A stretch of 25,195 nt of DNA from an uncultured Clostridia bacterium. Lineage in GTDB: Bacteria > Bacillota > Clostridia > Peptostreptococcales > Anaerovoracaceae. Below, one piece after another: positions 119-25,195 of the stretch. The position numbers and the translations under genes are program-made. Positions within the stretch are counted from its first letter, which is position 1. Each line of letters opens with the position of its first letter. A model generated the notes under the pieces. That model had not been told where the DNA came from, searched no databases, and saw only the letters and a list, made by a program, of their open reading frames with translations. The stretch covers positions 1-25,195 of the forward strand of contig CAKQNZ010000011.1 in the NCBI GenBank assembly GCA_934255435.1, written 5' to 3'.

Positions 119-148
119 TTGACAAACAACAGTATAAGGGAGTATTAT
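119..148 (+). promoter_or_regulatory. Sigma-A type promoter upstream of the cobalamin riboswitch
   Basis: A perfect -35 box TTGACA (119-124) is followed after 18 bp by a -10-like TATTAT (143-148). Transcription would begin near 155, just before the riboswitch aptamer. This is the only convincing promoter before the first gene cluster. The 118 bp upstream are AT-rich and hold nothing I can support as a gene. Confidence 0.75.
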
Positions 149-164
149 ATTCTCGAAATCTGAA

Positions 165-350
165 TAATTGGTCAGAGGCGATTAGGAAGCCGGTCAGAAT
201 CCGGCACTGTGTCTCAGCAACCGTGTGATCTACTGAAGGACAGGCATGAAGCTGCAGCATGATATGGCAGCTGTGCAGCCACTGAAGTTTTCGAAGCTTT
301 GGGAAGGTGTTCCGGAGGGCATGATGATCAAGTCGGTATACGGCGTTATC
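165..350 (+). ncRNA. Cobalamin riboswitch aptamer
   Basis: Conserved cobalamin-aptamer blocks appear in the right order. These are a GGTCAGAATCCGGCACTG segment (192-209) followed by CAGCAACCGTG, a GCCACTG box (278-284), a GGGAAGG box (301-307) and an AGTCGGTATACGGCG 3' block (331-345), which matches the family's AGTCnGnAnAC signature. A peripheral stem AGCTGC/GCAGCT (250-255 with 267-272) lies between the two halves, as in forms with large peripheral arms. Riboswitches of this class normally switch genes off when coenzyme B12 is plentiful. The aptamer therefore marks the downstream genes as B12-related. The exact ligand form (adenosyl- or aqua-cobalamin) cannot be decided by eye. Confidence 0.9.
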
Positions 351-446
351 TGGCATGAAGTTAGCTTTCTGGGGTGAAGCAGACGTTTTTTGTTTACATT
401 TTTTCAAATACATCAATGAAGGAAATGTATATTTGAGGTAGAGAAA

Positions 447-554
447 ATGTATTCAGGAAGTGCAGTTACAGGTACAGGTATCGTAACGACAGACATCTCG
501 GAAACGGGGTGTCTTATTTTTTTAAAGAAGCCTTTTCATCCGCAGGGCGGATAG
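447..554 (+). CDS. Possible 35-aa leader peptide ORF
   Basis: An ATG at 447 follows a purine-rich GAGGTAGAGA and opens a 35-codon frame ending with TAG at 552-554. The peptide starts MYSGSAVTGTGIVTTDIS. Its codons run straight through the terminator-like hairpin at 491-514, so ribosomes on it could affect folding. I do not recognise the peptide. It may equally be a chance frame in an untranslated leader. Confidence 0.25.
   Translation: MYSGSAVTGTGIVTTDISETGCLIFLKKPFHPQGG
491..523 (+). terminator. Terminator-like hairpin in the leader, likely riboswitch expression platform
   Basis: AGACATCTCG (491-500) pairs with CGGGGTGTCT (505-514) across a GAAA tetraloop. Two pairs are G-U wobbles. A T-rich run ATTTTTTT follows directly. 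This is the best intrinsic terminator between the aptamer (ends about 350) and the first gene (792). It is the natural candidate for B12-dependent premature termination, although it lies about 140 nt beyond the aptamer core. I could not identify a clear antiterminator by eye. Confidence 0.6.
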
Positions 555-587
555 AAAGTATCAGATACATGATATCTGCCCTGTTTT
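543..587 (+). other. Second leader hairpin followed by a short T-run
   Basis: CAGGGC (543-548) can pair with GCCCTG (578-583). This encloses a perfect AGATA/TATCT hairpin (563-567 with 573-577), and TTTT follows. A competing small stem ATCCGC/GCGGAT (538-543 with 547-552) shares bases with it. It may be a weak second terminator or an alternative fold of the leader. Confidence 0.35.
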
Positions 588-670
588 CCTTATGTATGGG
601 ACTTCCGTGATCCAGCGGGACCGGTACAGATACAGTGAAAACGGTATTATTCAGAGCACAGGACATGGAT

Positions 671-738
671 ATTATCCGCACTGCCGTGAAGCAGGCGGAA
701 TAATAGGTGTACAAATGGCTGCGGCAGGGCAGGCCGCA
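671..738 (+). other. Stable hairpins just upstream of the first large gene
   Basis: ATTATCCGC-a-CTGC (671-684) pairs with GCAG-GCGG-a-ATAAT (691-704) around a CGTGAA loop. That gives a 13-bp stem with two single-base bulges. A second stem TGCGGC/GCCGCA (720-725 with 733-738) follows. Neither is followed by a U-run, so they are not terminators. They sit 55-120 nt before the start codon and could influence mRNA stability or translation. The rest of the 555-791 interval shows no gene. Confidence 0.4.
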
Positions 739-791
739 TGGATCTGCCTCGCAGCGTAATTCTCGGTCAGAACGAGGAAGGAGTGAGAGAT

Positions 792-3700
792 TTGAAGAAC
801 AAGTTATTGACGTGGGTAACGACGCTGGTCGTGACCACAGTGATGGTGTTTGGAGGCAGCGCATCGGTATTTGCCGATACGACTCAGGTATCCGTCAAAG
901 TGAGCCCGAAAGTCCTGGAACTGGAAAAGGGCGAAACAGAGACGATCACCGCAACGGTGAAACCGGCTGACAGCGGTGAGAAAGTCTCATGGGATTCTTC
1001 CAATGAAAAAGTAGCCAAAGTAGACGGCGGTAAAGTAACAGCCGTTGGCAAAGGTATGGCTGCAGTTACAGCTACATGCGGTGACGCCGAGGCAACATGC
1101 GTTGTCACAGTAGAAGAGAACGCAGCACCGGAAAAGATCACAGTGAAGGCTGCAGACGACAGCAAAGTGGTGATGGCAAAGGGATATTCATCGGATATGC
1201 CGGTATTTGCCACAGATGGCAGTGAAGATACCTTCTATCTTGAGGTAAGCAGCGTGACACCGGAAACTGCGAGCAAAAAAGTAAAATGGAGCAGCAGTGA
1301 CAGCAGTGTAAGCATCAGCAGAAGTGGCAAGGTCACAGTCCCTGCAGGTATAAAGAGCAGCAAGTACGTCAGATTCACAGCTACATCTGCTGTAAACAGT
1401 TCAGTCAAGGCTGAATTCGCAGTATACATACTGCCGGTTCTGAGCATTAACGTGCGTTATGCAGAGTATGGTAAGACGTACATCCAGATCCCTGAAAACG
1501 GTGTCGTAAACAGAACAGGCAACTATGTCATACCGGATCCGTCACAGTACAGGGATTACAATATGTCTGAGGCTGTTTCAGAAGATGGATCCATAGTGAA
1601 GATAGTGGGCAATATGTATATGCATCCTGTCAAAGCCGGCAGCTGCAGGGTGACCATACAGGACAAGTACAACTCATGGAACAAGGCTTCTGCGGATATC
1701 ACTGTAAAAGGTTTCTTCATAAGAGATGCAGAAGGCACCCCGGAGGAGACATATGTGAATGAAGGTTCCACAGTACAGCTCAAGGCTGACACGGATGCAG
1801 AGGTGACTTCCTGGACAAGTTCGGACGATAAAGTTGCGAAGATCGACGACAAGGGTCTTGTGACTGCAGTCAAGGCAGGTCTGGCAAAGATCACAGCTGA
1901 AACTGCGGACGGCAAGGCAACATACAAAGTGAATGTCACAGAAAAAGGCAAAGTGTATTCTGAGAAAATGTATCTTGCGACAAGCCCTGCTGTATATACA
2001 GACGAGGACTGCAAGACTGCTGTTAAAACAGAATCAAACTATCTCAACAGCACAACGACGACCAGCACTACTGCACATTACATGGGAGTGACAGACACTG
2101 CTGACCGCCAGTTCTACCTCAAAGAAAGCACAAGTTCACAGAAGATAGGCGTTGGTATCGTATATGACAAGAAAAAAGTCAAGGCTGAGATACTGAAAGA
2201 CGGCGAAAAAGCTCAGACTATGGAATCCGAAAAAACGACGAACGTAGCACTGCAGCCGGGAGACAACACATTTACACTGAGAGTGACATCCCTGGAGGAT
2301 GAAAAGAACTATACAGATTATGTATACAAAGTAAGAGCAGGCTATTCCAGCAACGAGAAGATATCTTCAGTCGTGCTGAAGACATCTGAAAGAGCGATGG
2401 ATTCCATGAAAAAATACAAGCCTGCAGGAGTAACAAGCTCAAATGCAGAGGGAGCTTTATACAGAGTGAACTCCGACGGTACTGTGGATACGAAGACAAG
2501 ACCAGGATTCAATGCGACATGGTACGACTACAAGGCGTACCTGTATGATGATGCGGAAGATGTGATCCTCACTGCAAAGACCACTGACACAGTATCAGGT
2601 CATATCGCATATTCCACAGACGAAGGAAAGACATGGACTGAGGGCAGCAAGTCGGTGACTACCGATGCGCTCAAGCTCAGTGCAGACAAGAGCACTAAGA
2701 TACAGCTCAAATGCGTATCTGACAAGGCCTACAGAGCGGCAAAGGCAGACGGCAAAGATCCGTTCGCAAACGAAGCAGTAAAAGCATACACCATAGATGT
2801 AGAAAAACTTTCATCAGATGTTTCAGATAAGACAGTGATCAAATCCGTATCATTTGATAAGAACTGCAAAGAGTGCACGCCTAACTACAGAAAAGGCGCC
2901 AAGGCAATGGCAGCACTGGTGGCACATGAGGCAGATACAGCAACTGTGACCATCACAGCAGACAAGGATGCTACACTTTACAGTAACAGGTCAGCAAGTG
3001 ACGCATATAAGATGACTAAAGTAAAGGATGACGAAAACGGCGACGCTGTATACGAACTGACTGTAAAAACGCCGCTCGCTGATCAGGGCAACCAGATAAC
3101 ACAGTACCTTCTTGCGACATATACTGATAAGGCCGGTAATACGACAGAAGACAACTACACTTTATATCTGTTCAAAAAAGGTACAAAGAATGGAGTCCTC
3201 AAGGGAACGCCTGACAAGATCACAGATTACCTTTGCATAGGCAGTCAGTACACCAATGGCGGCAACACAGGCTGGGGTATCTACGGTCTCTTCCCTGAAA
3301 AGATATTCATGGACGCAGGAAACTGGTATACATGTGTATCGCTGGGCAACTTTGGCGGATACATGACGCTCTATTATGACGATCCGATAACAGACGATCC
3401 GGACAATGTCTACGGTGTGGATTTCACCGTATTTGGCAACTCCAACGGTGGACAGAGCTTCTCGGAGCCGGGCAACGTACTGGTATCAGAGGATGGCAAG
3501 ACATGGTATTCCCTGGCAGGATCGGAGCACTATGATGCTACAAGCAGATGGAACTACGAAGTAACATACAAAAAATCAGACAGCGATATAGCTGACTACT
3601 CGGACAACGACGGCAACGGCGGAAGCCTTGGTACAGGATGGGCTCCTTATCAGCTGCCTAGGAAGAACCTCTATCCTCTTTACAACTGGGCTACTGAGGA

Positions 3701-5216
3701 TCAGATAACAGTGAAAGGTACACGTCTGTATACTAATGCCAACAGTAAGGGAGCCGGTATAGAATCAGGCAGTGCACTGTTACCGGCCTTCGGATACTTC
3801 GACGTACAGAAGAACTCGGCAACAGTTGCAGGTACAGGTGAAGATGTCAACCTCCTCACTACTCCTGTAGGAAATCCGTACATGAAAGATTATGATGGTT
3901 ACGGAGACGGCTTCGACCTGAAGTGGGCAGTAGATGAAAATGGCGATCCTGTAGATGTAAAGGATAAGAAATTCCACTATGTGAAGGTGCAGACAGCTTC
4001 CTTCATCAATGCAGGTGCTATCGGAGAAAAATCAGCTGAGATAAGCTCCATGGTAAGGACTACTCCTGAAAAGGAATCCATCGGAACTACGGCAGCTCCT
4101 GAGAAACTGACTGTTGCAGGCACAGACATAAAACTTTCGAAAGATAAGGACGTATACTATGTACAGGTTCCTGAAAAGGATGAATACAAAGTCAGCGTCA
4201 AGGCAGCAAATGATGATACCAACATCTACCTCAACAATGAGAGAACATCAGAGAGATCTTTTGAAGGTCTTCCTGACAAGGGCATCATCCGTGTGATCGT
4301 TCAGGAAGGAAAATCCAACCCTGTGATCTACTACATCCATACTTCAAAAGCAGGAGACAATGCAGCCGCAGATGTAGCAGCTATGATCGAATCAGCTGAA
4401 AGCGAAAGCGATCTGCTGGCAGCGAAGAAAGCATATGACGCACTGTCAGATGCCGACAAGGAAAATGTCTTCAATGCAGACAAGCTGAACAGCGAGATCA
4501 GCAAGATGGATGTGAAGGCTGCCATTGAAGCTATAGATGCCATCGGCACTGTGGATGCATCAAGCAAAGACAAGCTGGATGCTGCAAGAAAGGCATACGA
4601 CAAGCTTTCCGACAGAGAAAAGGAACAGGTTAGCAACTACCAGAAGCTGGTGAACGCTGAAATGAAGTATGAAAACATGAATCTCAAAGATGAGCTGGCA
4701 AAGACTAAGTTCGATGCGGTGAAGATAACACTTTCGTACAGCAAGGCAGCATACAGCGGCAAAGCAAAGAAGCCTGAAGTGAAAGCTGCATACTACGGAA
4801 AGACTCTCAAAAAGGGTACAGACTACACTGTAGCATATTCAGCAAACAAGAATATAGGCACTGCAAAGGTGGCTGTAACAGGAAAAGGCGAATATGCAGG
4901 AACGAAAGTAAAGTCTTTCAGGATCGTACCTGAGGATACGACGATATCCAAAGTCACAAAGGGCAAAAAACAGTTCACAGTAAAGTGGAAGAAACAGAGC
5001 TCTAAAACATCCGGATATCAGATCAGGTATGCGACAAGCATCAAGATGAGCAAGGCAAAGACAGTGACAGTCAAAAAGAATACTGCAACGTCCAAAACTG
5101 TGAAGAAGCTCAAGGCAAACAAAAAATACTATGTTCAGGTGAGAACATATGCGAAAGCCGGAAACGGTACATACTATTCAGACTGGTCAAAAGCAAAGTC
5201 AGTAAAGACCAAGTAA
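792..5216 (+). CDS. Large secreted Ig-like surface protein with central corrinoid-locus-type domain
   Basis: Encodes a 1474-aa secreted protein. I chose the TTG at 792 because GGAAGGAG lies 8 nt upstream and it opens a clean signal peptide (MKNKLLTWVTTLVVTTVMVF, cleavage near SVFA-DTT at about residue 29). The upstream in-frame ATG at 738 sits in a hairpin and adds a hydrophilic stretch. Domains in order: bacterial Ig-like Big_2 (about 30-110), a second Ig-like domain (about 112-212), another Big_2 (about 320-385), beta-rich linkers, an all-beta domain (about 805-1090) with VDFTVFGNS and SEPGNVLVSEDGKTWYSLAG, a helical repeat pair with AYDALSD/AYDKLSD (about 1193-1291), an MBG/YDG-like domain (about 1311-1378) and one lysine-rich FN3 domain at the end. 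The central domain resembles one I recall from Bacteroidetes surface proteins in B12 loci. No sortase motif or S-layer domain is seen. It is the first gene after the riboswitch, so a corrinoid role is likely but unproven. Confidence 0.88.
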   Translation: MKNKLLTWVTTLVVTTVMVFGGSASVFADTTQVSVKVSPKVLELEKGETETITATVKPADSGEKVSWDSSNEKVAKVDGGKVTAVGKGMAAVTATCGDAEATCVVTVEENAAPEKITVKAADDSKVVMAKGYSSDMPVFATDGSEDTFYLEVSSVTPETASKKVKWSSSDSSVSISRSGKVTVPAGIKSSKYVRFTATSAVNSSVKAEFAVYILPVLSINVRYAEYGKTYIQIPENGVVNRTGNYVIPDPSQYRDYNMSEAVSEDGSIVKIVGNMYMHPVKAGSCRVTIQDKYNSWNKASADITVKGFFIRDAEGTPEETYVNEGSTVQLKADTDAEVTSWTSSDDKVAKIDDKGLVTAVKAGLAKITAETADGKATYKVNVTEKGKVYSEKMYLATSPAVYTDEDCKTAVKTESNYLNSTTTTSTTAHYMGVTDTADRQFYLKESTSSQKIGVGIVYDKKKVKAEILKDGEKAQTMESEKTTNVALQPGDNTFTLRVTSLEDEKNYTDYVYKVRAGYSSNEKISSVVLKTSERAMDSMKKYKPAGVTSSNAEGALYRVNSDGTVDTKTRPGFNATWYDYKAYLYDDAEDVILTAKTTDTVSGHIAYSTDEGKTWTEGSKSVTTDALKLSADKSTKIQLKCVSDKAYRAAKADGKDPFANEAVKAYTIDVEKLSSDVSDKTVIKSVSFDKNCKECTPNYRKGAKAMAALVAHEADTATVTITADKDATLYSNRSASDAYKMTKVKDDENGDAVYELTVKTPLADQGNQITQYLLATYTDKAGNTTEDNYTLYLFKKGTKNGVLKGTPDKITDYLCIGSQYTNGGNTGWGIYGLFPEKIFMDAGNWYTCVSLGNFGGYMTLYYDDPITDDPDNVYGVDFTVFGNSNGGQSFSEPGNVLVSEDGKTWYSLAGSEHYDATSRWNYEVTYKKSDSDIADYSDNDGNGGSLGTGWAPYQLPRKNLYPLYNWATEDQITVKGTRLYTNANSKGAGIESGSALLPAFGYFDVQKNSATVAGTGEDVNLLTTPVGNPYMKDYDGYGDGFDLKWAVDENGDPVDVKDKKFHYVKVQTASFINAGAIGEKSAEISSMVRTTPEKESIGTTAAPEKLTVAGTDIKLSKDKDVYYVQVPEKDEYKVSVKAANDDTNIYLNNERTSERSFEGLPDKGIIRVIVQEGKSNPVIYYIHTSKAGDNAAADVAAMIESAESESDLLAAKKAYDALSDADKENVFNADKLNSEISKMDVKAAIEAIDAIGTVDASSKDKLDAARKAYDKLSDREKEQVSNYQKLVNAEMKYENMNLKDELAKTKFDAVKITLSYSKAAYSGKAKKPEVKAAYYGKTLKKGTDYTVAYSANKNIGTAKVAVTGKGEYAGTKVKSFRIVPEDTTISKVTKGKKQFTVKWKKQSSKTSGYQIRYATSIKMSKAKTVTVKKNTATSKTVKKLKANKKYYVQVRTYAKAGNGTYYSDWSKAKSVKTK

Positions 5217-5248
5217 GAAAAAAGTAAAACATCAGGTTATGTTTATAT

Positions 5249-5279: not shown

Positions 5280-5360
5280 TAAAAAAATGACAGGCAGAAA
5301 AGGGAGAAATCGGTTATCATATCAAGTGATAAGAGGGACAGGTCACACAAAAGGAAAAGG

Positions 5361-6347
5361 ATGAAAAAAAGGATGAAAGGGAATAATGCAATGAAACAGG
5401 AATTTCAAAAAAGAGGTTTTCCGGCTGTTCTTGCGGTGGTGCTGATACTGCTGATGATAATGATAATGAGTTCATGCGGCAGCAGCAAGAATGATCCCGG
5501 ATCGATGCGGGATGCGGCTGCAAAGGCACTTTACAGCCAGTCAAAGGAAGCAAAGACTGGAGCCGTGGGAGGCGACTGGACGGTGATCGCACTGTCAAAG
5601 AGCGGCATCGAAACTGAAAAAGACTATTACGACAGATACTATGACAGCGTATGCGAATACGTGAAAAAAATGAAAGGCGATCTGTCTTCAACAAAATATA
5701 CAGAATATGCAAGGCTCAGCATAGCAGTGAGCTGCATAGGAAAGGATCCGACAGATGTAGCAGGGTATGATCTGATGAAAGCTGCGAAGGATCTTGATTT
5801 CATAAAAAAACAGGGTATAAACGGACCTGTGTTCGCACTCATAGCGGCGAACATGGCAGGGTATGAGCCAGTGCTGGACAACTCAGACAAGTATATCGAC
5901 TATATACTGAGCCAGGAGATAAATGGCGGCGGATTCGCTCTTGAAGGTCCGAAGGGCAGCCCGTATATAGATATAACAGCGATGACAGTGCAGGCACTGT
6001 CATATTACAGAGATGATGCAAAGGTGAAAAAAGTCATCGACAGAGCTGTAGATGTCATGGCGGATCTGCAGCAGGAAGGCGGAGGATATGACAGCTCGGA
6101 AAGCATATCACAGACTATAATAGCGCTGACAGCTGCCGGTATCGATCCGCTGACAGACCAGCGCTTCATCACAGACGGCAGGACGCTGGTGGATGATCTT
6201 GCCGGATATATGACGGATGATGATATGTTCGTTCATGAGGAAGGTTCGGACAGCGATACGATGGCAACAGAGCAGGCGCTTTGTGCGCTGGATGCTGTTT
6301 CACTGGCAGATGAAGGACATATGCTTTATGAAGCTGCGGGGAACTAA
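5361..6347 (+). CDS. Putative lipoprotein with alpha/alpha-toroid (transcobalamin alpha-domain/prenyltransferase-like) fold
   Basis: A 328-aa exported protein. Residues 19-38 are strongly hydrophobic and end in MSSC, with Cys39 as a plausible lipidation site; Met at the -3 position makes the lipobox imperfect. After the membrane anchor come helical pairs with glycine-rich turns, for example EINGGGFALEG (about 186-196) and QEGGGYDSSES (about 238-248), each followed by an ITAMTVQAL- or ISQTIIALTAAGIDP-type helix. This pattern is typical of prenyltransferase/squalene-cyclase-type toroids, the same fold as the N-terminal alpha domain of eukaryotic transcobalamin and intrinsic factor. The next gene supplies a transcobalamin C-terminal-like domain and overlaps this one by 20 nt, so the two products may work as a pair. 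Starts at 5361, 5373 and 5391 are all possible; 5391 gives the most compact signal peptide. Corrinoid binding is inferred from fold and locus. Confidence 0.85.
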   Translation: MKKRMKGNNAMKQEFQKRGFPAVLAVVLILLMIMIMSSCGSSKNDPGSMRDAAAKALYSQSKEAKTGAVGGDWTVIALSKSGIETEKDYYDRYYDSVCEYVKKMKGDLSSTKYTEYARLSIAVSCIGKDPTDVAGYDLMKAAKDLDFIKKQGINGPVFALIAANMAGYEPVLDNSDKYIDYILSQEINGGGFALEGPKGSPYIDITAMTVQALSYYRDDAKVKKVIDRAVDVMADLQQEGGGYDSSESISQTIIALTAAGIDPLTDQRFITDGRTLVDDLAGYMTDDDMFVHEEGSDSDTMATEQALCALDAVSLADEGHMLYEAAGN

Positions 6348-8250: not shown

Positions 8251-8278
8251 TGTGAGGATGAAAAGGAGATATATACTG

Positions 8279-9247
8279 ATGCATAAAGAAGTAATGCAGG
8301 TACTGAACGAGGTCAGGAAAGTCATCATAGGCAAGGATCTCATCATAGCCAAGGTGTTCATGGCAGTGCTGTCAAAGGGCCATGTGCTGCTGGAAGACGT
8401 ACCGGGTGTGGGCAAGACCACACTGGCGCTGGCGTTCAGCAAGGCCCTGGGACTGGAGCACAGGAGAGTACAGTTCACAGCAGACAGCGTACCGTCGGAT
8501 ATCACTGGCTTTTCAGTATATGAGAAACATACAGGACAATTCGTATATAAGCCAGGAGCAGCTATGACGAACCTGCTTCTGGCAGACGAGATCAACAGGA
8601 CCTCCAGCAAGACCCAGTCGGCGCTGCTGGAGGTGATGGAGGAGCGTCAGACTACCGTGGACGGCGTGACGAGAAAGCTTCCGGAGCCTTTCATCGTGCT
8701 GGCGACCCAGAACCCGACAGGCTCTGCAGGTACGCAGATGCTGCCGGATTCACAGCTGGACAGATTCATGGTAAAGCTGGCTATGGGCTATCCCGATCTC
8801 AAAAGTCAGATAAACATACTCAAGGACAGACATCGCAGGGATCCCCTCAGCGAGATAAACCAGGTGACTGACAAGGAACGACTTATAAAGATGCAGGAAG
8901 AGACAGATGCGGTATATATCGCAGATCCTGTCTATGAATATATAGCAAGGCTGGCAGACGCCACGAGAAGGAATGAATTGATACAGCTGGGCGTGAGTCC
9001 CAGAGGAACGATAGCCCTGTGCAGGATGACAAAGGCCTACGCTTTCGTCACAGGCAGGGATTTCGTGATACCGGAAGACGTCAGCGCTGTATTCAGCGAT
9101 GTCTGTGGCCACAGGATAATAGTGAGCCCGAAGGCGAGGATAGCAGAGCGCAGAGCTGAAGACATACTGGCTGAGATCCTGAAAACGGAGACGGTGCCGC
9201 AGATAAGACAGGGGCATACAGCTGCAGATACAGGTAAGAAACGATGA
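8279..9247 (+). CDS. MoxR-family AAA+ ATPase
   Basis: A 322-aa cytoplasmic AAA+ ATPase. The start at ATG 8279 is chosen because AAAGGAGA lies 9 nt upstream; a GTG at 8252 and an ATG at 8258 are in frame but poorly placed. Visible motifs are Walker A PGVGKTT (42-48), Walker B LLLADEINR with Asp103-Glu104, sensor 1 ATQNP (142-146) and sensor 2 SPRG (240-243), all in normal positions. Length is typical for the MoxR family. MoxR ATPases act as chaperones that mature or assemble extracytoplasmic or metal-containing complexes, usually with a DUF58 partner. Here the DUF58 gene overlaps this stop codon (ATGA), followed by a transglutaminase-like gene, which is the classic trio. The likely client is the surrounding surface apparatus, by context only. 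Confidence 0.95.
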   Translation: MHKEVMQVLNEVRKVIIGKDLIIAKVFMAVLSKGHVLLEDVPGVGKTTLALAFSKALGLEHRRVQFTADSVPSDITGFSVYEKHTGQFVYKPGAAMTNLLLADEINRTSSKTQSALLEVMEERQTTVDGVTRKLPEPFIVLATQNPTGSAGTQMLPDSQLDRFMVKLAMGYPDLKSQINILKDRHRRDPLSEINQVTDKERLIKMQEETDAVYIADPVYEYIARLADATRRNELIQLGVSPRGTIALCRMTKAYAFVTGRDFVIPEDVSAVFSDVCGHRIIVSPKARIAERRAEDILAEILKTETVPQIRQGHTAADTGKKR

Positions 9248-12844: not shown

Positions 12845-12873
12845 GAAGAAAGAAGAAAAAGGAGGACACCGGA

Positions 12874-17572: not shown

Positions 17573-20500
17573 ATGAAAAAAAGAAACGCCGTTGCGCTGA
17601 TAATGTCTCTGATGATGGTCCTTTCCATCTTCGGCGGCAGCACATCAGCGGTGTTTGCAGCAGGAGGTGACAGCGACAGTGCTGTCACACAGGCAGATAC
17701 AGTCAAACTGACCTTGAGGGCGGATCCTTCAGATTCCATCGTAAGGGTAGAAAATGCTTCCAGCGAAAAAGTCGAAGCAGATGCCGATGGAACATATGCT
17801 CTTTCATCGGGAGAGACTTATACATACACTGTTACAAAGACAGGCTATGCAGGTCAGAGCGGCGAGCTCAGCCTCGACAAGGACACAGTCAAGGAAGTGA
17901 AGCTTGAAAAGGCTGCAGAAAACAGCAAGATAGACAAGAACATCAAGTCGGAATGGAAGAACTTCCGTAACAGCGATGTGAACATGGCTATCACAAATGC
18001 GAAGACGCCGATAACATCAAAGTCAACTAACCTCAGATGGGCGAAGAAGTACGGCACAGGCTGGTCGGCAGCACCTTGTATCCAGATCATCGTAAAAGGA
18101 AAGGTCATCACTATAGTTGGCAGCAAGATATATCAGCTGGATCCGAAAACAGGTGAAGTAGAAAAGGAAGGTCAGCTTGTAGGCTCCACTAACTGGGGAT
18201 ACACACCTATGACATATGCAGACGGCATGATCTTCTGCCCGCTGGCAAACGGCACTATCCAGGCAGTCAACGCCGACACTCTTGAATCAGTGTGGGTATA
18301 CAAGGATCCTCTCGGCGGACAGTCGCTGTCACCGATAACTTACAGCGACGGATACATTTACACAGGTTTCTGGAACAAGGAGACTACAGACGCCAACTAT
18401 GTGTGTCTGTCAGTTACAGATGAAGACCCATCAAAGACTGATGAATCGAAGCTTGCTACATGGAGATTCACCCACAAGGGAGGATTCTACTGGGCAGGTT
18501 CAGTAGCCATCGGCGATTCACTGGTATTCGGTACAGATGATGGAGAGAACGGATACCAGGGATCATCGAAACTCTATTCATTGAACAAGTACACTGGTAA
18601 AGTGATAAGTGACTGCAATCTCACAGGAGACCAGAGATCCACTATCGCATACGACAAGGAATCAGGCAGAGTATACGGTACTACAAAGGGTGGTCATCTG
18701 TTCTCAGCTGCCATAGACGAAAAGACAGGAAAGCTGTCAGGTCTCAAGGATGAAGATTACAAGGCACAGTCCACAAGTACGCCTGTAGTCTACAAAGGCA
18801 AGGTATACTTCGCAACAGGTTCAGGGATCTCCACAACAGGCTCCAGCGGCAACCTGGTAGTGGCAGAAGCCGATACACTGAAAATGGACTATGCTGTAGG
18901 CCTCAAAGGCTATCCGCAGTCATCGGTACTGCTGTCAACAGCATATGAGGAGTCGACAGGATATATCTACCTCTACTCAACATACAACATGACTCCGGGC
19001 GGAGTTTCCATGGTGAAGACAAAGCCTGACAACACTAAGGCAGAAGGCGCAGAGCTGACAGAGATATACGATGCAGACGGATATTCACAGTACTGCATCA
19101 CGAGCCTTATCTGCGGTGAAGACGGCACTATATATTACAAGAACGACTCATGCAATATATTCGCTCTTGAAAACAACAGTGCATATCTCGAAAGCATGGA
19201 GATCACAGGCGGGGACGCTGAGCTGAACAAGGCATTCAAAACAGGAACGACATCATACGAAGCAGTAGTAGATTCCGGAACAAAGTCAGTAGACATCAAG
19301 CTTGCAGCAGTAGAAGGTGCAAGCGTAACAGTGAACGATGAAAAGCTGACATCAGACACAGCTAAAGTCGAGCTCAAAGATGGCAAGGCAGAAGCCGTGA
19401 TCAAAGTGACGAATGGCGAGCACAGCAGGACATACACTGTGAATATCAGCTCAAAATCCGATGATGCTGCTCTCAGTTCACTTCAGGTCAATGAATATAA
19501 CGGATACAGTAGCTTCAAGACGCTGAGCCCGACATTCACGCCTGACAATACTGTATATACTATGTACAATGCAGGCTCTTCAAGGACTTTCGAAAACCTC
19601 TGGCCTGATGCAAGACACAAGAGCGCCAGCGTAAAGGTATATGCATTATACGGCATAGACGACAACCGTGTCAGCGATAAGAACACAAAAGAGATCAAAG
19701 TCACAGCCAGCAATTCAGGACATAACAGATACGCTATTTACTTTGGCACAGGCAAGGACACTACAGTAGTAAGAGTGGAAGTGACTGCAGAAGACGGCAA
19801 GACTAAGAAGAACTATTACGTTACATACACTAAGCAGAGCGATGATACGAACCTCATCGAAGTGAAAAGGGCAATAGCTTCAGACCAGCTGGGAAGGATG
19901 ATATCAGATTCAGATTATGATCAGGACGAGCTGGATCAGGCGAAACTCATCATCAAGGATGCTCAGCGTCAGATGAAATCGGCAGAGGATACAGATGACA
20001 TCGACACTATAATCGCAAAAGCCAAGCAGGACATCAGCAAGATCGAAACAAAGGCTGACAAAGAAAAAGCTGCACAGGAAAAGGCCGACAAGGACAAGGC
20101 AGATGCAGACAAACAGGCTGAACTGGACAAGCTGAAGGAACAGCAGGAAAAAGACAAGGCAGAGAAGGAAGCTGCAAAAGCTCTGGAAACTGCAAAGAAC
20201 AGCGCTCTTAAAGAACTGAAGGGCACTATAGCAGATACATCTGCATACAGACTTGCCGAGCAGCTGAAGATCATGTCCATCATAGTGAACGGACAGGCAG
20301 ATATAATAGCAGCTGAAGATGCAGACAGCGTTGCGAAGGTCCTGGAAGCTGCTAAGAAAGAACTGGCAGCAGTGAAGACAGATGCAGAGCTCAAGGCAGA
20401 AGAGTTTGCAGCAGCAGCGACAGCAGCGACAGTGAAAGCATCGGACTACAAGACAGCGAAGATCACATGGAAGGCTGTAGCGAACGCAGACGGCTATGAA

Positions 20501-20983
20501 GTATACAGATCGACTTCAAAGAACAGCGGTTTCAGGAAGACAGCATCAGTGACGAAGACATCAGCAGCCGACAGCAGCCTGAAGACAGGAAATACTTACT
20601 ACTACAAGGTGAGAGCATATGCCAGCATCAACGGAAAAGATGTATACAGCAAGTATTCAGCTGTAAGATCAGTGAAGACTTCCCTGGGCAAAACAGGAAA
20701 ACTCTGCCTGAAGACAGGCAAAGCAAAAGTAACTGTGACATACGGCAAGGTGAAAGGTGCGAACGGATACCAGATATACCGTTCTACTAAGAAGTCAGGC
20801 GGATTCAAGTGCGTCAAGACTATCAAGAGCGGAAACACAGTGAAATTCGTGAACAAGAACCTCAAAAAGGGACAGAACTACTACTACAAAGTAAGAGCTT
20901 ACAGGACTGTAGATGGAAAGAAAGTATACGGTGCATACAGCTCTGTGAAAAAAGTAAGAGTATATACAACGTACAATTATTGA
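17573..20983 (+). CDS. Secreted beta-propeller protein, paralogue of the upstream gene
   Basis: A 1136-aa protein starting 16 nt after the previous gene behind AAGGAGAG. The signal peptide is residues 1-29 (cleavage near AVFA-AGG). Domains: a PEGA-like domain (about 42-110), a PQQ-like propeller (about 115-535), two cadherin-like domains (about 540-620 and 629-755), a long Lys/Glu/Ala-rich helical spacer that looks like a coiled coil (about 760-946), then two FN3 domains ending in a basic tail. Shared strings with the previous protein include YVCLSVTDEDP and HKGGFYWAG, so the propellers arose by tandem duplication. This copy lacks the N-terminal DUF4430-like part and the Big_3 domain. The FN3 repeats contain YYYKVRAY strings also found in the neighbour. 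It is the last gene before a strong terminator. The ligand is unknown; a corrinoid is suggested by the locus. Confidence 0.87.
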   Translation: MKKRNAVALIMSLMMVLSIFGGSTSAVFAAGGDSDSAVTQADTVKLTLRADPSDSIVRVENASSEKVEADADGTYALSSGETYTYTVTKTGYAGQSGELSLDKDTVKEVKLEKAAENSKIDKNIKSEWKNFRNSDVNMAITNAKTPITSKSTNLRWAKKYGTGWSAAPCIQIIVKGKVITIVGSKIYQLDPKTGEVEKEGQLVGSTNWGYTPMTYADGMIFCPLANGTIQAVNADTLESVWVYKDPLGGQSLSPITYSDGYIYTGFWNKETTDANYVCLSVTDEDPSKTDESKLATWRFTHKGGFYWAGSVAIGDSLVFGTDDGENGYQGSSKLYSLNKYTGKVISDCNLTGDQRSTIAYDKESGRVYGTTKGGHLFSAAIDEKTGKLSGLKDEDYKAQSTSTPVVYKGKVYFATGSGISTTGSSGNLVVAEADTLKMDYAVGLKGYPQSSVLLSTAYEESTGYIYLYSTYNMTPGGVSMVKTKPDNTKAEGAELTEIYDADGYSQYCITSLICGEDGTIYYKNDSCNIFALENNSAYLESMEITGGDAELNKAFKTGTTSYEAVVDSGTKSVDIKLAAVEGASVTVNDEKLTSDTAKVELKDGKAEAVIKVTNGEHSRTYTVNISSKSDDAALSSLQVNEYNGYSSFKTLSPTFTPDNTVYTMYNAGSSRTFENLWPDARHKSASVKVYALYGIDDNRVSDKNTKEIKVTASNSGHNRYAIYFGTGKDTTVVRVEVTAEDGKTKKNYYVTYTKQSDDTNLIEVKRAIASDQLGRMISDSDYDQDELDQAKLIIKDAQRQMKSAEDTDDIDTIIAKAKQDISKIETKADKEKAAQEKADKDKADADKQAELDKLKEQQEKDKAEKEAAKALETAKNSALKELKGTIADTSAYRLAEQLKIMSIIVNGQADIIAAEDADSVAKVLEAAKKELAAVKTDAELKAEEFAAAATAATVKASDYKTAKITWKAVANADGYEVYRSTSKNSGFRKTASVTKTSAADSSLKTGNTYYYKVRAYASINGKDVYSKYSAVRSVKTSLGKTGKLCLKTGKAKVTVTYGKVKGANGYQIYRSTKKSGGFKCVKTIKSGNTVKFVNKNLKKGQNYYYKVRAYRTVDGKKVYGAYSSVKKVRVYTTYNY

Positions 20984-21016: not shown

Positions 21017-21075
21017 ATGCCGGTCAGGGAAGGCAGGATATCAATATCCTGCTTTTCACTGAACCGGCATTTTTT
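21017..21075 (+). terminator. Strong intrinsic terminator closing the surface-apparatus operon
   Basis: ATGCCGGTCAG (21017-21027) pairs with CTGaACCGGCAT (21059-21070, one bulged A). This encloses an inner perfect hairpin GCAGGATA/TATCCTGC (21033-21040 with 21045-21052). A run of six T follows at 21070-21075. The inner hairpin alone is also followed by TTTT. A second copy of ATGCCGG at 20983-20989, overlapping the stop codon, could compete for the same 3' arm. Confidence 0.85.
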
Positions 21076-21121: not shown

Positions 21122-21125
21122 GAAC

Positions 21126-21155
21126 TTGACACATACAGATACAGGATAGTAATAT
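21126..21155 (+). promoter_or_regulatory. Sigma-A type promoter for the ECF transporter unit
   Basis: A perfect TTGACA (21126-21131) and TAATAT (21150-21155) are separated by 18 bp. The start site would be near 21162, leaving a leader of only about 50 nt before ATG 21211. That is too short for a cobalamin riboswitch, so this unit is not under a riboswitch of its own in the visible sequence. Confidence 0.75.
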
Positions 21156-21210
21156 TAACAGGACTACAGGAGATCTGTGCTTCGATTTACTGTGAAACAG
21201 GAGAAGATAT

Positions 21211-22380
21211 ATGCGTGCAAAATCTAAAAAAAGGATAATGAATGTTGTGATGATAGCTGTCATAGCAGTTATCGCCGCCGCAGCAGCAGCAGGAACAGGA
21301 TATCTCAAAGGCTGGTTCGGAGGCGGCAGCGCCGTAATGGATCAGACATCGGGAATAGTCAGCATAGAGCGCAGCGGTGTGGCATTCACACCAAAAGAGG
21401 ATACGAAGCTCAGAAACGGAGATATCCTTGATACAGGTTCGGGAGCGGAGGCTCAGGTACTGGCGGGCAGCAACAGATACATACTTGCAGAAGATACACA
21501 GCTTTCATTTAATGAAGCAGAGGGAAGCAGAGTATTGCTGAGCCAGAAAGATGGAGAAGTATTTCTGATACTGGATAAAAAAAGCAGTTTCAGAAAGCTT
21601 GCTGCAGGCGGCTATACGCTTGAGTGCGACAGTGGAGTGTTTGCATCAGATGTGCAGAAAGGCTCCATGAGCATCAGGGTATTCAGCGGCAGCGCCAGCA
21701 TCAGCAAAGGAAAGAAAACAAAGACAGCAGACGCCGGTCATGAGATAAATATCGCAGACGGAAAGATGTCCGTCAGCAGGATGAGTGCATCAGCGCTAAG
21801 CGATTTCGATATAGGCAGGCTGGAAACAGCAGGCAAAGATCACAAGCTGTGTTTCAGCAGCAGCGAGCTTGAAAAGACATCATCTGCAAGAAAAGCTGAG
21901 ATCATGAGCGCACAGAAAGAACTGGCGCACAGCAGCAAAGTAATAAGAGCAGGCAAAAGCGGCGATGAGAAACTGAAGACATGCATCATATCTCTGAGAT
22001 GCGAGACGATACTTGATAACATGAAAAAACTGACGAAAAGCAAGGTCCGGTATGTTCCGTCAGACGGCGTGATACTGCCGGCAACGACAGTTGAATTCAA
22101 AGATGGAGAGAGTGTCTTCGATGTACTGAAAAGAGTCTGCGATGCTGAAAATATACAGCTGGAGTATTCATATTCGCCGGGATACAGCAACAACTATATC
22201 GAAGGCATAAACAACCTTTATGAATTTGACTGCGGTCCGCTGTCAGGATGGACGTACAAGGTCAACGGGTGGTTCCCGAACTACGGCTGCAGTGGTTACA
22301 AACTCAAAGGCTCGGAAACTATAGTATGGGAATACACCTGTACAGGATACGGCAGCGATACAGGAGGCGGAACGAAATGA
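21211..22380 (+). CDS. Membrane-anchored FecR-like plus DUF4430 protein of the ECF operon
   Basis: A 389-aa protein with CAGGAGAAG upstream. Residues 9-31 are a signal anchor. Residues about 45-185 look like a FecR-type beta domain: an opening ERSGVAFTPKEDTKLRNGD strand, a LNGDxLxTG-like turn, then VFSGSASISKG. A helical linker leads to a clear DUF4430 domain (about 290-380), with ESVFDVLKRVCDAENI, LSGWTYKVNGWFPN and ETIVWEYTC, the best DUF4430 match in the window. DUF4430 is related to the transcobalamin C-terminal domain. The gene overlaps the T-component gene by 4 nt (ATGA), so the product is probably an accessory surface receptor that passes ligand to the ECF transporter. The FecR-like part is probably a structural module, since no sigma factor or TonB system is present. 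Confidence 0.88.
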   Translation: MRAKSKKRIMNVVMIAVIAVIAAAAAAGTGYLKGWFGGGSAVMDQTSGIVSIERSGVAFTPKEDTKLRNGDILDTGSGAEAQVLAGSNRYILAEDTQLSFNEAEGSRVLLSQKDGEVFLILDKKSSFRKLAAGGYTLECDSGVFASDVQKGSMSIRVFSGSASISKGKKTKTADAGHEINIADGKMSVSRMSASALSDFDIGRLETAGKDHKLCFSSSELEKTSSARKAEIMSAQKELAHSSKVIRAGKSGDEKLKTCIISLRCETILDNMKKLTKSKVRYVPSDGVILPATTVEFKDGESVFDVLKRVCDAENIQLEYSYSPGYSNNYIEGINNLYEFDCGPLSGWTYKVNGWFPNYGCSGYKLKGSETIVWEYTCTGYGSDTGGGTK

Positions 22381-23309
22381 CAGGCAGCAGAGATACATTT
22401 TCATCGTATGATCCTGTGATAAATTTCATTTTTTTCGCAGGAGCTGTGGTGTTCAGTATGTTTTTCATACACCCTTTATTCCTGATATGCACTTTTTTCC
22501 TGTCGTCCGTATACTATCTGACAGTGAAGGGGCGCAGCGGCATCAGGCTCATAATCGGGATGATACCGCTTTTTATCTTTATGTCTGCAGTGAATCCACT
22601 GCTCAACAGCGCCGGAGACACAGTGATGTTCACATATTTCGGAGGCAGGCCGTATACTTTCGAGGCGCTCTGCTACGGCATGGCGCTGAGCTGTATGTTC
22701 ATCAGCGTGATAATATGGTTCGCATCATACAGCATCGTGATGACAAGTGACAAATTCATGTATATATTCGGCAGGACGGCGCCGTCACTGTCGCTGGTAT
22801 TCACGATGATACTGAGGTTCCTGCCGCTGTACCGCAAAAAAGCCGCACAGATATCATCGGCGAGAAGCTGCATAGGAAGATCAGGCTCCCAGGGTACAAG
22901 AGGAGAGAAGATACGAAGCGGCATGACGATACTTTCCGCTCTGACATCCTGGGCGCTGGAGGGCGGCATAGTCACGGCAGACAGCATGCGGAGCCGGGGA
23001 TACGGCAGCGGCAGCAGGACAGCTTTTTCGATATACAGGTTCGGTCTGCGGGATATGCTTCTTATGGCAGTGATGGTGGCACTTGCCATCATCGTGATAC
23101 TGTGTGGAGCCACGGGATCAGCAGGAGCCAGCTATACGCCGGAAATGAACATATCGCCTGCAAGCGATATCCATACAGCAGCGGGAGCGGCAGCATATTT
23201 CGTTTTCCTGTCATTACCGTCAGTCATAAATATTACGGAGGAGATAAAATGGAACATTTTGAGATCTGACCTTTGCATATCCGGGAGCAGAGGACAGACC
23301 AGTTCTTGA
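22377..23309 (+). CDS. ecfT: ECF transporter T component (EcfT/CbiQ family), 3' end altered by frameshift
   Basis: Encodes the transmembrane coupling subunit of an ECF transporter, 310 aa as read here. The ATG at 22377 overlaps the previous stop (ATGA). There are about five hydrophobic helices. A T-component coupling signature is visible: SARSCIGR and then ALEGGIVTADSMRSRGYG (about 193-210), whose charged small-residue helices contact the ATPases. The last 15 or so residues (after EEIKWNILRS) read through into the start of the ATPase gene. Adding one GATC after 23266 would end the protein at EEIKWNILRSI, a normal-looking C-terminus, so the tail seen here is probably an artefact of a 4-bp loss. 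Substrate choice is set by the S component, not by this protein. Confidence 0.9.
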   Translation: MTGSRDTFSSYDPVINFIFFAGAVVFSMFFIHPLFLICTFFLSSVYYLTVKGRSGIRLIIGMIPLFIFMSAVNPLLNSAGDTVMFTYFGGRPYTFEALCYGMALSCMFISVIIWFASYSIVMTSDKFMYIFGRTAPSLSLVFTMILRFLPLYRKKAAQISSARSCIGRSGSQGTRGEKIRSGMTILSALTSWALEGGIVTADSMRSRGYGSGSRTAFSIYRFGLRDMLLMAVMVALAIIVILCGATGSAGASYTPEMNISPASDIHTAAGAAAYFVFLSLPSVINITEEIKWNILRSDLCISGSRGQTSS

Positions 23310-24906
23310 GAATATAGATCTGAAGATAGAAAAAGGAGAATATATCACGTTGTGCGGCAGGAGCGGCAGCGGCAAGACGACGCTGCTGAGACACCTTAAA
23401 AGTGTCCTGAGACCTCACGGCGTACTTACAGGAGAAGTGCTGCTTGACGGAAGGCCTCTTGATGATGCAGACCTGCGCAGGCAGTCATCTGCCATAGGCT
23501 ATGTGATGCAGGATCCGGACAGCCAGATAGTCACCGATAAAGTATGGCACGAGCTTGCTTTCGGACTGGAAAGTCTTGGGACAGATCAGAAGACCATAAG
23601 GCTGAGAGTCGCAGAGATGGCCAGCTACTTCGGGATACAGGGGTGGTTCCATCGTGATGTCGCAGACCTTTCAGGAGGACAGAAACAGCTTCTGAATCTG
23701 GCGTCGATAATGGCGATGCAGCCTGAGGTGCTGATACTTGACGAGCCCACAAGCCAGCTGGATCCTATAGCGGCTTCGGATTTTCTGAATACGGTCCGTA
23801 AAATAAATCTTGAACTGGGGACTACGGTGATAATAACAGAGCACAGGCTTGAAGACATTTTCCATGCCTCGGACAGAGTCATAGTCATGGAAAAAGGCAG
23901 GATCATCTCCGATGACACGCCGTCAAGGACAGGTGAGCTGCTGAAGGCAGGCGGCAATGAGATGTTTGCTGCTATGCCGTCACCTGTGCAGATATTCCAT
24001 GCCGTGACAGAGGGGCAGGGATGCCCGCTCACAGTCAGAGAAGGCAGGAACTGGCTTTCGGAGCTGTTCAAAGACAGAAAGCCGGAGCATACACACATAG
24101 AGGAACAGGACTATGACGAGGATGTACAGGCAGCCGTGGAGCTGAAGGAAGTCTGGTTCAGATACGATAAAAACGCTCCCGATGTGCTGAAAGGTGTGTC
24201 ATTCAGTGTCCCGGAAAACAGTCTCTTTGCGATAGTGGGCGGCAACGGCACAGGAAAGTCCACAACGCTGAAGGCGATATGCGACATATGCAGGCCATAC
24301 AGAGGCAAAGTGCTGATAGGCGGCAAAAAAGCAGAAAAATACAAGGCAGGAGAGCTTTTCAGGAGGAACCTTGCGATGCTGCCGCAGGATCCCCGGAGCC
24401 TTTTCGTGAAAAAAACGGTCAGAGAAGACATGGAGGAAATGCTCGACTGTAGCATCAGCGAGGCGCAGAAGCGTGTGGAGGAGGTATCGTCTGTATGCGA
24501 TATAGCGCATCTTCTGGACAGGCATCCCTATGATCTGTCAGGCGGCGAACAGCAGAAGGCAGCCCTTGCAAAGGTCCTGCTGACAGAGCCGAAGATACTG
24601 CTTCTCGACGAGCCCACCAAGGGAATAGACAGCTTCTTCAAGCTGGAGTTTGCAAAGATACTGGGAAGGCTCAGGGAGCGTGGCGTGACGATAATAATGG
24701 TATCTCACGATATCGAGTTCTGTGCGAGATATGCAGATACAGTCAGCATGTTCTTCGACGGCGATATAATAACGACGGACACGCCGCACCGGTTCTTTTC
24801 GAAGAACAGCTTTTACACTACAGCGGCAAACAGGATGAGCCGCCATATATTCGATAATGCAGTGACAAGTGAGGATGTGATAAAACTATGCCAGAAAAAT
24901 CTTTAA
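23249..24906 (+). CDS. ECF transporter ATPase with two fused ABC domains; 5' end frameshifted
   Basis: Two complete ABC ATPase domains in one chain energise the ECF transporter. Numbered from the TTG at 23350: first domain Walker A GRSGSGKTT (3-11), Q-loop MQDPDSQ, signature LSGGQKQ (about 105), Walker B LILDEPTS (about 128), switch His in TEHRLED. Second domain: Walker A GGNGTGKST (about 297), LPQDPRS, LSGGEQQ (about 396), LLLDEPTKG (about 416), VSHD. The natural start appears to be ATG 23249, which has GGAGGAG 5 nt upstream, but that frame stops after six codons (TGA 23267-23269). The ATPase frame (DLTFAYPG onward, from 23263) is blocked upstream by TGA 23260-23262. Only the TTG at 23350 could start it in frame, and that would delete the first beta strand and the A-loop aromatic residue. 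The gene is either mutated or carries a sequence error. The stop overlaps the S-component gene. Confidence 0.85.
23260..23270 (+). other. Frameshift point at the T-component/ATPase junction
   Basis: The sequence reads TGAGATCTGAC. Insertion of a second GATC after 23266 restores two things at once: the T component would end IKWNILRSI-stop, and the ATPase would start MEHFEIDLTFAYPG from ATG 23249. Loss of one copy of a tandem GATCGATC is therefore the simplest explanation. Confidence 0.7.
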
Positions 24907-25195
24907 AATCAAAAGGCGTGCTGATAAGTGCTGTATTTGCTGTGATACTGGTACCGGCAGTGCTGCTGCTTTCCGCTCATATGGGAAACAGGAACTACTA
25001 TATCGCAGGAGTCCTCATAATGGTGATCGCCATGATACCGTTCTTTGCAGGATTCGAGAGCAGAAAGCCTGAAGCAAGAGAACTTGTCACCATCGCTGTG
25101 ATGTGTGCCATCGCAGTGATATCGAGGATAGTTTTCCTGCCGCTTCAGGGATTCAAGCCGATACTGGGCATAGTCATGATAACGGGGCTTTCCTT
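24888..25195 (+). CDS. ECF transporter S component, partial (cut by window end)
   Basis: An ATG at 24888, 19 nt inside the ATPase gene, opens a frame that runs off the window after about 102 codons. The visible part has a first transmembrane helix (GVLISAVFAVILVPAVLLLS, about 10-29) and a second (GVLIMVIAMIPFFAGF). A cytoplasmic-looking ESRKPEARELV segment follows, then further helices with RIVFLPLQGFKPILGIVMIT. This pattern fits a family of Bacillota S components commonly annotated only as ECF transporter S component. The gene follows T and A genes in the usual dedicated-operon manner. The substrate is not shown by the sequence; cobalamin is inferred from the riboswitch and DUF4430 context, making a CbrT-like role possible. 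Confidence 0.85.
   Translation, partial: MPEKSLKSKGVLISAVFAVILVPAVLLLSAHMGNRNYYIAGVLIMVIAMIPFFAGFESRKPEARELVTIAVMCAIAVISRIVFLPLQGFKPILGIVMITGLS

What the first reader, a model, noticed from the sequence alone, without database searches (positions are those of the whole stretch)
119..25195. A 25-kb Gram-positive corrinoid capture-and-import locus
A cobalamin riboswitch leads a cluster of giant surface proteins, three DUF4430-type domains in three different proteins, two beta-propellers, an assembly-type MoxR trio and an ECF transporter. The combination suggests a relay from wall to membrane, serving the role that BtuG/BtuB surface complexes serve in Bacteroidetes but with different parts. This is the strongest candidate for an undescribed system in the window.
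Basis: partly seen in the sequence, partly recalled or inferred. Interest (0 to 1): 0.85.

Follow-up and report, generated by a model that had tools for sequence, protein, structure and literature searches.

The report
Gram-positive vitamin B12 capture-and-import locus
This stretch of a gut-type Gram-positive bacterium's DNA most likely encodes a surface apparatus that catches vitamin B12 and relatives and passes them to a membrane pump; its core was predicted in 2007, but it also carries a B12-binding domain so far known mainly from Bacteroides.

Summary
A cobalamin riboswitch (185-341) leads surface-protein genes, a toroid lipoprotein, DUF4430 proteins, two PQQ-propeller proteins, MoxR-DUF58-transglutaminase-like genes and an ECF transporter. 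Relatives' S components match the proven B12 transporter CbrT (1.7e-16; next RibU 4e-4). Of 63 S-family genes in 199 genomes, 53 lie within 10 kb of DUF4430 and 46 within 10 kb of a cobalamin riboswitch. So one part is shared with Bacteroides. Corrections: the third DUF4430 is only suggestive; the ECF genes sit behind a strong terminator with a promoter-like site of their own; the ECF ATPase frame is interrupted at its start; S is cut by the window end. Burroughs et al. 2007 already predicted B12 scavenging by transcobalamin-like, toroid and propeller proteins with CbiO/CbiQ-like genes in low-GC Gram-positives. Roles of propellers and trio, and the relay order, are inferred.

The parts
119..148 (+). 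promoter-like site TTGACA-18-TATTAT
   Evidence: 11 of 12 consensus matches, best of 12 hits in 1-6500, where shuffles give a mean of 9.5 hits; consensus match only
185..341 (+). cobalamin riboswitch aptamer (partial match, with B12 box GCCACTG)
   Evidence: RF00174, 35 bits, gathering 31.5
491..524 (+). intrinsic-terminator-like hairpin between aptamer and first gene; candidate expression platform
   Evidence: RNA fold -14.7 kcal/mol, z -5.6
738..5216 (+). gene 1: 1492-aa surface protein with Big_2 Ig-like domains, BtuH-family domain, C-terminal fn3
   Evidence: ORF, Pfam; start codon not settled
3333..4049 (+). BtuH-family (vitamin B12-binding) domain inside gene 1
   Evidence: phmmer to BtuG1 (8BLW_B) 6.2e-15 over two stretches; profile of 12 copies hits only 8BLW_B 9.6e-39 and BtuH2 7BIZ_A 1.2e-30 in the PDB at E<=10
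5361..6347 (+). toroid lipoprotein (lipobox-like SSCGS), 328 aa
   Evidence: Pfam hits under cut-off, 22-member alignment, AlphaFold model pLDDT 89, alpha/alpha toroid fold
6328..8250 (+). Ig-like protein with N-terminal membrane-anchor-like segment and C-terminal DUF4430 (listed ORF starts at 6217; ATG at 6328 overlaps the toroid stop)
   Evidence: iterated DUF4430 profile 1.4e-23 at aa 514-669 of the 677-aa ORF
8252..9247 (+). MoxR-type AAA ATPase
   Evidence: AAA_3 181.5 bits
9244..10416 (+). DUF58 protein
   Evidence: PF01882 23.0 bits against cut-off 23.4; co-located homologs
10430..12844 (+). membrane transglutaminase-like protein without Cys at the expected catalytic position
   Evidence: PF01841 66.6 bits; motif
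12823..17556 (+). 1577-aa surface protein: N-terminal region of unsettled fold, cadherin-like, PQQ propeller, fn3
   Evidence: N-terminal region
17573..20983 (+). 1136-aa surface protein: PQQ propeller, cadherin-like, C-terminal fn3-like
   Evidence: fn3 under cut-off
21017..21075 (+). strong intrinsic terminator
   Evidence: hairpin followed by six T; -36.8 kcal/mol, z -7.3
21126..21155 (+). promoter-like site TTGACA-18-TAATAT before the ECF unit
   Evidence: 10 of 12 matches; consensus match only
21211..22380 (+). 389-aa membrane-anchored DUF4430 protein (FecR family PF04773 also marked in many relatives)
   Evidence: PF14478 67.9 bits at aa 299-376; 5729 relatives at E<=0.001 among 7997 scored
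22377..23309 (+). ECF T component (from the inner ATG of ORF 22248-23309)
   Evidence: relatives in 61 of 77 loci, usually between the DUF4430 and ECF-A genes; no Pfam or NCBIfam name
23350..24906 (+). ECF double ATPase; its reading frame is interrupted just upstream of this ORF
   Evidence: TIGR04520 325.9 bits summed over two ATPase domains, cut-off 315; frames
24888..25195 (+). ECF S component, CbrT-like in relatives, cut by the window end
   Evidence: A4 alignment; profile to CbrT 6FNP 1.7e-16; the 102-aa piece alone finds nothing at E<=10

Best explanation
The locus is a Gram-positive corrinoid (vitamin B12 and relatives) scavenging system. Under corrinoid shortage the cobalamin riboswitch lets transcription pass into the surface-protein genes. 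Large secreted proteins catch the corrinoid: gene 1 with a BtuH-family domain, and the toroid lipoprotein and transcobalamin-like DUF4430 domains, which together resemble the two halves of intrinsic factor. The ligand is passed inward to a membrane-anchored DUF4430 protein encoded beside the transporter and taken up by an ATP-driven ECF transporter whose S component is CbrT-like. Shown by computation: the domains, the riboswitch, the conserved co-location. Inferred: binding, order of hand-off, a capture or scaffold role of the PQQ propellers, and an assembly or surface-maturation role of the MoxR-DUF58-TGase-like trio.
For: Riboswitch 35 bits. S profile hits CbrT 6FNP at 63.5 bits, next RibU 22.9 bits; 6FNP is the ECF-CbrT complex that transports cobalamin and cobinamide (PMC5997447, passages). 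BtuH-family domain: the profile hits only 8BLW_B and 7BIZ_A; that BtuG1 carries a BtuH domain and that BtuH2 binds B12 is from PMC10404256 and PMC8941943 (passages), and both halves of that fusion were found to bind cobalamin alone (PMC12751083, passage). Co-location from an independent start: relatives of the S component (E<=1e-10) in 60 of 199 genomes; 53 of 63 such genes have DUF4430 and 46 of 63 a cobalamin riboswitch within 10 kb; 106 of 132 DUF4430 matches lie within 12 kb of a riboswitch. Rough comparison: TGase genes of 9 genomes, 2 of 62, both in loci of this type. In 41 genomes chosen by the toroid, 58 of 150 listed riboswitches lie within 12 kb of a toroid gene, 1.7 expected. Fusions: BtuH with DUF4430 in 8 ORFs, one also with a toroid; DUF4430, cadherin-like, PQQ, toroid and SLH in L067.
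Confidence: 0.8

Rival explanations
1. Only riboswitch, gene 1, toroid, DUF4430 and ECF genes serve corrinoids; the MoxR-DUF58-TGase-like trio and the PQQ surface proteins are a general surface-assembly module that shares the neighbourhood.
For: The trio is found in only 11-12 of 77 loci; TGase-like copies elsewhere in the same genomes often lack the same Cys (6 of 7 that the motif pattern reached); no direct link of the propellers to B12, no BtuG match for the 1136-aa protein at E<=1.
Against: In all 11 loci with MoxR the trio is contiguous, in the same order, and next to toroid and PQQ genes, in two different arrangements; L067 carries PQQ, DUF4430 and toroid in one polypeptide, L043 PQQ and toroid; a Collinsella protein named DUF4430 domain-containing matches the propeller part of the 1136-aa protein.
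Confidence: 0.4
2. The ligand is not a complete cobamide but cobalt, cobinamide or another precursor, or a different compound such as a flavin.
For: CbiO/CbiQ-type genes were first tied to cobalt, and Burroughs 2007 left room for precursors; CbrT also moves cobinamide; Pfam's S family is named for riboflavin.
Against: S component nearest to CbrT among S components in the PDB, RibU 40 bits behind; BtuH-family domain; cobalamin riboswitches.
Confidence: 0.15
3. Capture proteins are B12-regulated but hand the ligand to another transporter; the ECF unit here is separately regulated or inactive.
For: Terminator and promoter-like site before the ECF unit, no riboswitch there, interrupted ATPase start.
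Against: Toroid, DUF4430 and ECF genes are adjacent in most of the 77 loci; in L020 a riboswitch precedes the ECF genes; a frame break in one assembly may be a sequence error.
Confidence: 0.12
4. The toroid protein is an enzyme such as a class II terpene cyclase.
Against: At the aligned DxDD position the last D is I, L, M, V or A in 22 of 22 sequences (one, P0124, has a DxDD elsewhere); lipoprotein-like start; neighbours.
Confidence: 0.02

Closest known systems
Transcobalamin-like (SLBB, DUF4430) scavenging operons of low-GC Gram-positives, Burroughs et al. 2007 (PMC1796856)
   Same: DUF4430, alpha/alpha toroid, beta-propeller and Ig fusions, second SLBB paralogue, CbiO/CbiQ-like genes; predicted B12 scavenging
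   Different: That text holds no riboswitch, MoxR, transglutaminase or BtuG (word search) and no BtuH or ECF-CbrT (occurrence counts); here these are tied in
BtuH / BtuG1 H-domain of Bacteroides thetaiotaomicron
   Same: homologous B12-binding domain behind Ig-like domains, in a cobalamin-riboswitch locus
   Different: Gram-positive surface protein, no Cys in the first 50 residues of the ORF, no BtuB; in relatives fused to DUF4430 and toroid
ECF-CbrT of Lactobacillus delbrueckii
   Same: S component of the same family in relatives (profile 1.7e-16)
   Different: dedicated T and double ATPase genes beside it, with surface capture proteins; longer N-terminus in some relatives
Animal intrinsic factor, transcobalamin, haptocorrin
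   Different: the two halves are separate proteins in the window; about 12% identity
BtuB-BtuG complexes of Bacteroidetes
   Same: surface capture before transport, one shared domain type
   Different: no BtuB relative among the window's genes as named here; propellers are PQQ-like, with no BtuG match for the 1136-aa protein

Membership tests
Transcobalamin-like SLBB scavenging operon (Burroughs 2007) | secreted or anchored DUF4430 (SLBB) proteins | tested here: met
   389-aa protein 67.9 bits; second by iterated profile 1.4e-23
Transcobalamin-like SLBB scavenging operon (Burroughs 2007) | alpha/alpha toroid in the same protein or operon | tested here: met
   toroid lipoprotein 5361-6347, model and fold
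Transcobalamin-like SLBB scavenging operon (Burroughs 2007) | CbiO/CbiQ-like transporter genes beside it | tested here: met
   ECF T and A genes; ATPase frame interrupted at its start
Transcobalamin-like SLBB scavenging operon (Burroughs 2007) | binds B12 | not testable with these tools
   needs protein
BtuH-family domain | homology over the whole B12-binding globular domain | tested here: met
   7BIZ_A residues 268-486, 1.2e-30; 8BLW_B, 9.6e-39; no other PDB hit at E<=10; the window sequence alone finds 8BLW_B but not 7BIZ
BtuH-family domain | conserved B12-contact residues | not tested
   residue numbering of BtuH2 was not mapped
BtuH-family domain | Ig-like domains before the globular domain | tested here: met
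   Big_2 in gene 1, 61.9 bits
ECF-CbrT | S component homologous to CbrT more than to other S components in the PDB | tested here: met
   63.5 bits against 22.9 for RibU and 21.7 for 4hzu chain S, on 12 relatives plus the window piece; Pfam's own name is riboflavin S component
ECF-CbrT | full-length S component in this genome | tested here: inconclusive
   cut at the window end after 102 aa
Intrinsic factor / transcobalamin | toroid with this fold | tested here: inconclusive
Class II terpene cyclase | DxDD catalytic motif at the aligned place | tested here: not met
   absent there in 22 of 22 (the motif is from recall)
BtuG propeller | sequence similarity to BtuG | tested here: inconclusive
   1136-aa protein has no BtuG match at E<=1; the 1577-aa protein was not tested

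The most novel reading that the evidence does not exclude
Gram-positive gut bacteria run a wall-spanning corrinoid relay built from two unrelated kinds of B12 binder that occur in one polypeptide in relatives: a BtuH-family domain shared with Bacteroides and an intrinsic-factor-like toroid plus DUF4430 pair, with PQQ propellers and a MoxR-DUF58-TGase-like assembly trio, ending at a CbrT-like ECF pump.
Probability: 0.45. Interest if true: 0.78.

Novelty: new variant of a known kind. Interest (0 to 1): 0.62.

Why it matters
How Firmicutes obtain cobamides is stated to be less known (PMC8941943, passage), and the B12 transport systems of many gut genomes to be an open problem (PMC6593275, passage). 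In a sample of 199 genomes of a Blautia's phylum, 60 carry relatives of this S component, and 53 of the 63 genes lie beside DUF4430 and 46 beside a cobalamin riboswitch, which gives concrete genes to test. A BtuH-family domain fused to transcobalamin-like domains links Bacteroides, Gram-positive and animal B12 capture in one set of testable proteins.

Tried and rejected
Tried without result: own-genome search (none is held). PDB sequence search with the toroid, the 389-aa protein and the S fragment alone gave no useful match; the toroid profile found terpene cyclases. The 1577-aa N-terminal region as a third DUF4430 was not shown: profile iterations miss it, hhalign 59%, model pLDDT 56, and Foldseek gave only weak hits, E 0.18 and up, among them beta-grasp proteins and haptocorrin or transcobalamin but also unrelated chains. 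A riboswitch count by coordinates alone was dropped because contig identity was uncertain; it was replaced by contig-matched places. A missing TGase Cys as a hallmark of the locus was rejected: of the 30 TGase stretches fetched from 9 genomes, 9 are the locus copies, 7 others were reached by the motif pattern and 6 of these 7 lack it too (L116 has a Cys), 14 were not reached. A defence role of the MoxR trio: no PADLOC hit at E<=0.001. No Pfam or NCBIfam name for the T protein.

Limits of the counts: one search lists 150 of 155 riboswitch matches. Of the 77 loci, 34 were not given to the whole-genome searches (L012, L021, L024, L027, L031, L032, L034, L036, L038, L041-L046, L048, L049, L053-L061, L064, L066, L068-L070, L073, L075, L076) and L029 was given but is not held, so 42 loci in 41 genomes were searched. 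Matches above E 1e-5 were not counted. Genome samples are from the phylum of G019, the Blautia genome behind L020; the phylum name is not shown. The S hits fall into 11 genes of 288 bits or more (8 of 11 with DUF4430 within 10 kb) and 52 of 55-202 bits (45 of 52), whose nearness to CbrT was not tested one by one. The expected 1.7 uses rounded genome sizes, and related genomes are not independent. The TGase comparison uses 9 other genomes (G019 shared), chosen for the trio. Literature: only open-licence PubMed Central papers were searched; subscription papers are not covered.
Full report
What is in the window. The main genes lie on the + strand. A promoter-like site at 119-148, a cobalamin riboswitch at 185-341 (35 bits, gathering 31.5) and a terminator-like hairpin at 491-514 precede gene 1. 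Then follow a 1492-aa surface protein, a 328-aa toroid lipoprotein, an Ig/DUF4430 protein that overlaps it, MoxR, DUF58, a transglutaminase-like membrane protein, a 1577-aa and a 1136-aa PQQ surface protein, a membrane-anchored 389-aa DUF4430 protein and ECF T, double ATPase and S genes. S is cut off after 102 aa. No whole genome is held for the window; names given to relatives of the 389-aa protein include Anaerovoracaceae, Clostridiales, Eubacteriaceae and Lachnospiraceae.

The ECF unit. A strong terminator lies at 21017-21075 (-36.8 kcal/mol against a shuffle mean of -14.4, z -7.3), followed by a promoter-like site. A permissive Rfam search finds no second riboswitch. So the riboswitch most likely controls the genes from 738 to 20983, and the ECF genes form their own unit here. 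The ATPase gene starts in one frame (MEHFEI) and continues in another (DLTFAYPG onward), so its reading frame is interrupted in the first codons; this may be an error of the sequence or a real break.

Transport. Pfam files the S components of three relatives under the riboflavin S family PF07155 (34.8-47.1 bits, cut-off 26.7) and the general PF12822 (30.0-51.0, cut-off 30.7); NCBIfam folate and riboflavin models stay under their cut-offs. Against the PDB sequences the L020 S component hits only 6FNP chain A (4.8e-16, nothing else at E<=10); a profile of 12 relatives plus the window piece gives 6FNP 63.5 bits, RibU 22.9 and 4hzu chain S 21.7. 6FNP is ECF-CbrT, shown to transport cobalamin and cobinamide (PMC5997447, passages).

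The BtuH-family domain. Gene 1 residues 865-1006 matched BtuG1 of Bacteroides thetaiotaomicron (8BLW_B, 2.5e-12), and the cut-out domain matched it in two stretches (6.2e-15). The matched part of BtuG1 is its BtuH extension (PMC10404256, passages). A profile of the window copy and 11 relatives hits exactly two PDB sequences at E<=10: 8BLW_B (9.6e-39) and 7BIZ_A (1.2e-30); 7BIZ is BtuH2 with B12. In 398 genomes of the phylum of a Blautia the domain occurs in 7. I fetched 14 stretches around its matches: 13 of 14 hold DUF4430, toroid or both (L105 is the exception), and 10 of 14 hold a cobalamin or AdoCbl riboswitch at the gathering score (none in L094, L098, L103, L105). In 8 ORFs from 5 genomes the BtuH-family domain and DUF4430 are in one polypeptide, in L101 also with a toroid. 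That DUF4430 comes from my own iterated profile; the Pfam model itself lists a match over its cut-off inside 6 of the 8 ORFs (one, L098, only with its neighbours in the frame), one under the cut-off (L102) and none for L100; a later Pfam scan confirms L101 (32.6 bits) and lists none for L098 at E<=0.01. Putnam et al. [quoted passage not shown]

Neighbourhood in relatives. Of 77 loci found with the toroid profile, 71 hold a relative of the 389-aa protein, 61 T, 64 A, 59 S, 16 PQQ, 11 MoxR, 11 DUF58 and 12 TGase relatives at E<=1e-5. In all 11 with MoxR the order MoxR-DUF58-TGase is kept; the toroid gene precedes MoxR in 4 (L004, L008, L009, L020) and follows the PQQ gene in 7 (L003, L012, L016, L031, L033, L039, L040). 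In 41 genomes behind 42 of these loci, 58 of 150 listed cobalamin riboswitches lie within 12 kb of a toroid gene on the same contig, 49 of them upstream on the same strand; 1.7 are expected. 36 of 62 toroid clusters have one, in 29 of 41 genomes. Against this: of the 9 searched clusters with the MoxR trio only G004 (28.5 bits, under the cut-off) and G019 (32.3 bits) have one listed within 12 kb; in G026 three lie on the same strand about 24 kb upstream.

A start from the S component gives the same picture: 60 of 199 genomes have a relative at E<=1e-10 (63 genes); 53 of 63 have DUF4430 and 46 of 63 a cobalamin riboswitch within 10 kb; 106 of 132 DUF4430 matches lie within 12 kb of a riboswitch. 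TGase genes of 9 genomes as a rough comparison: 2 of 62, both in loci of this type.

How it probably works. Shortage of corrinoid opens the riboswitch; secreted BtuH-family, toroid and DUF4430 proteins catch corrinoid in the wall; the membrane-anchored DUF4430 protein next to the ECF genes hands it to the CbrT-like S component. The catch and hand-off steps are inferred from domains and fusions. PQQ propellers may be scaffolds or further binders: a DUF4430, cadherin-like, PQQ, toroid and SLH fusion exists in L067 (Pfam, where the toroid model is under its cut-off; toroid profile 8.3e-93). The trio may help fold or place these large proteins; its TGase-like member lacks the expected Cys in the window and 12 of 12 loci (the expected motif is from recall), as do 6 of 7 other copies that could be read.

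Novelty. The core (transcobalamin-like domain, toroid, propeller, CbiO/CbiQ-like genes, B12 scavenging in low-GC Gram-positives) was predicted in 2007. That text has no riboswitch, MoxR, transglutaminase or BtuG and no BtuH or ECF-CbrT. In the listings of searches (open-licence papers only) I saw no paper that joins BtuH, DUF4430 and CbrT. I call it a new variant of a known kind.

Noticed in passing
window 23240-23350: The start of the ECF ATPase gene is split over two reading frames (MEHFEI in one, DLTFAYPG onward in another).
   Followed up: partly
window 10430-12844 and L003-L056: The transglutaminase-like protein has Ser, Thr, Asp or another residue where the catalytic Cys is expected, in the window and 12 of 12 loci; 6 of 7 other readable copies in the same genomes lack it too.
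   Followed up: partly
L101:6562-12669 (-): One ORF of about 2035 aa joins a BtuH-family domain, DUF4430 and a toroid.
   Followed up: partly
L067:7760-11434: One ORF joins DUF4430, cadherin-like, PQQ propeller, toroid and SLH repeats, behind a riboswitch at 7397-7605; L043:282-3944 looks like a relative with PQQ and toroid.
   Followed up: partly
[quoted passage not shown] in L094 and L095 it is a separate protein next to the BtuH-domain gene. Its fold is not settled.
   Followed up: partly
window 17573-20983: Its propeller part matches a Collinsella aerofaciens protein annotated as DUF4430 domain-containing (25.6% identity) and a dockerin protein of Vescimonas (39%), the only 2 records hit among 72,556 plasmid records.
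   Followed up: no
window 5250-5280: A hairpin (CCCGTGGGAAT...ATTCCCACGGG) without a T run lies between gene 1 and the toroid gene.
   Followed up: no
control genomes: DUF4430 also occurs in Lactococcus lactis and Methanosarcina acetivorans among 14 control genomes.
   Followed up: no
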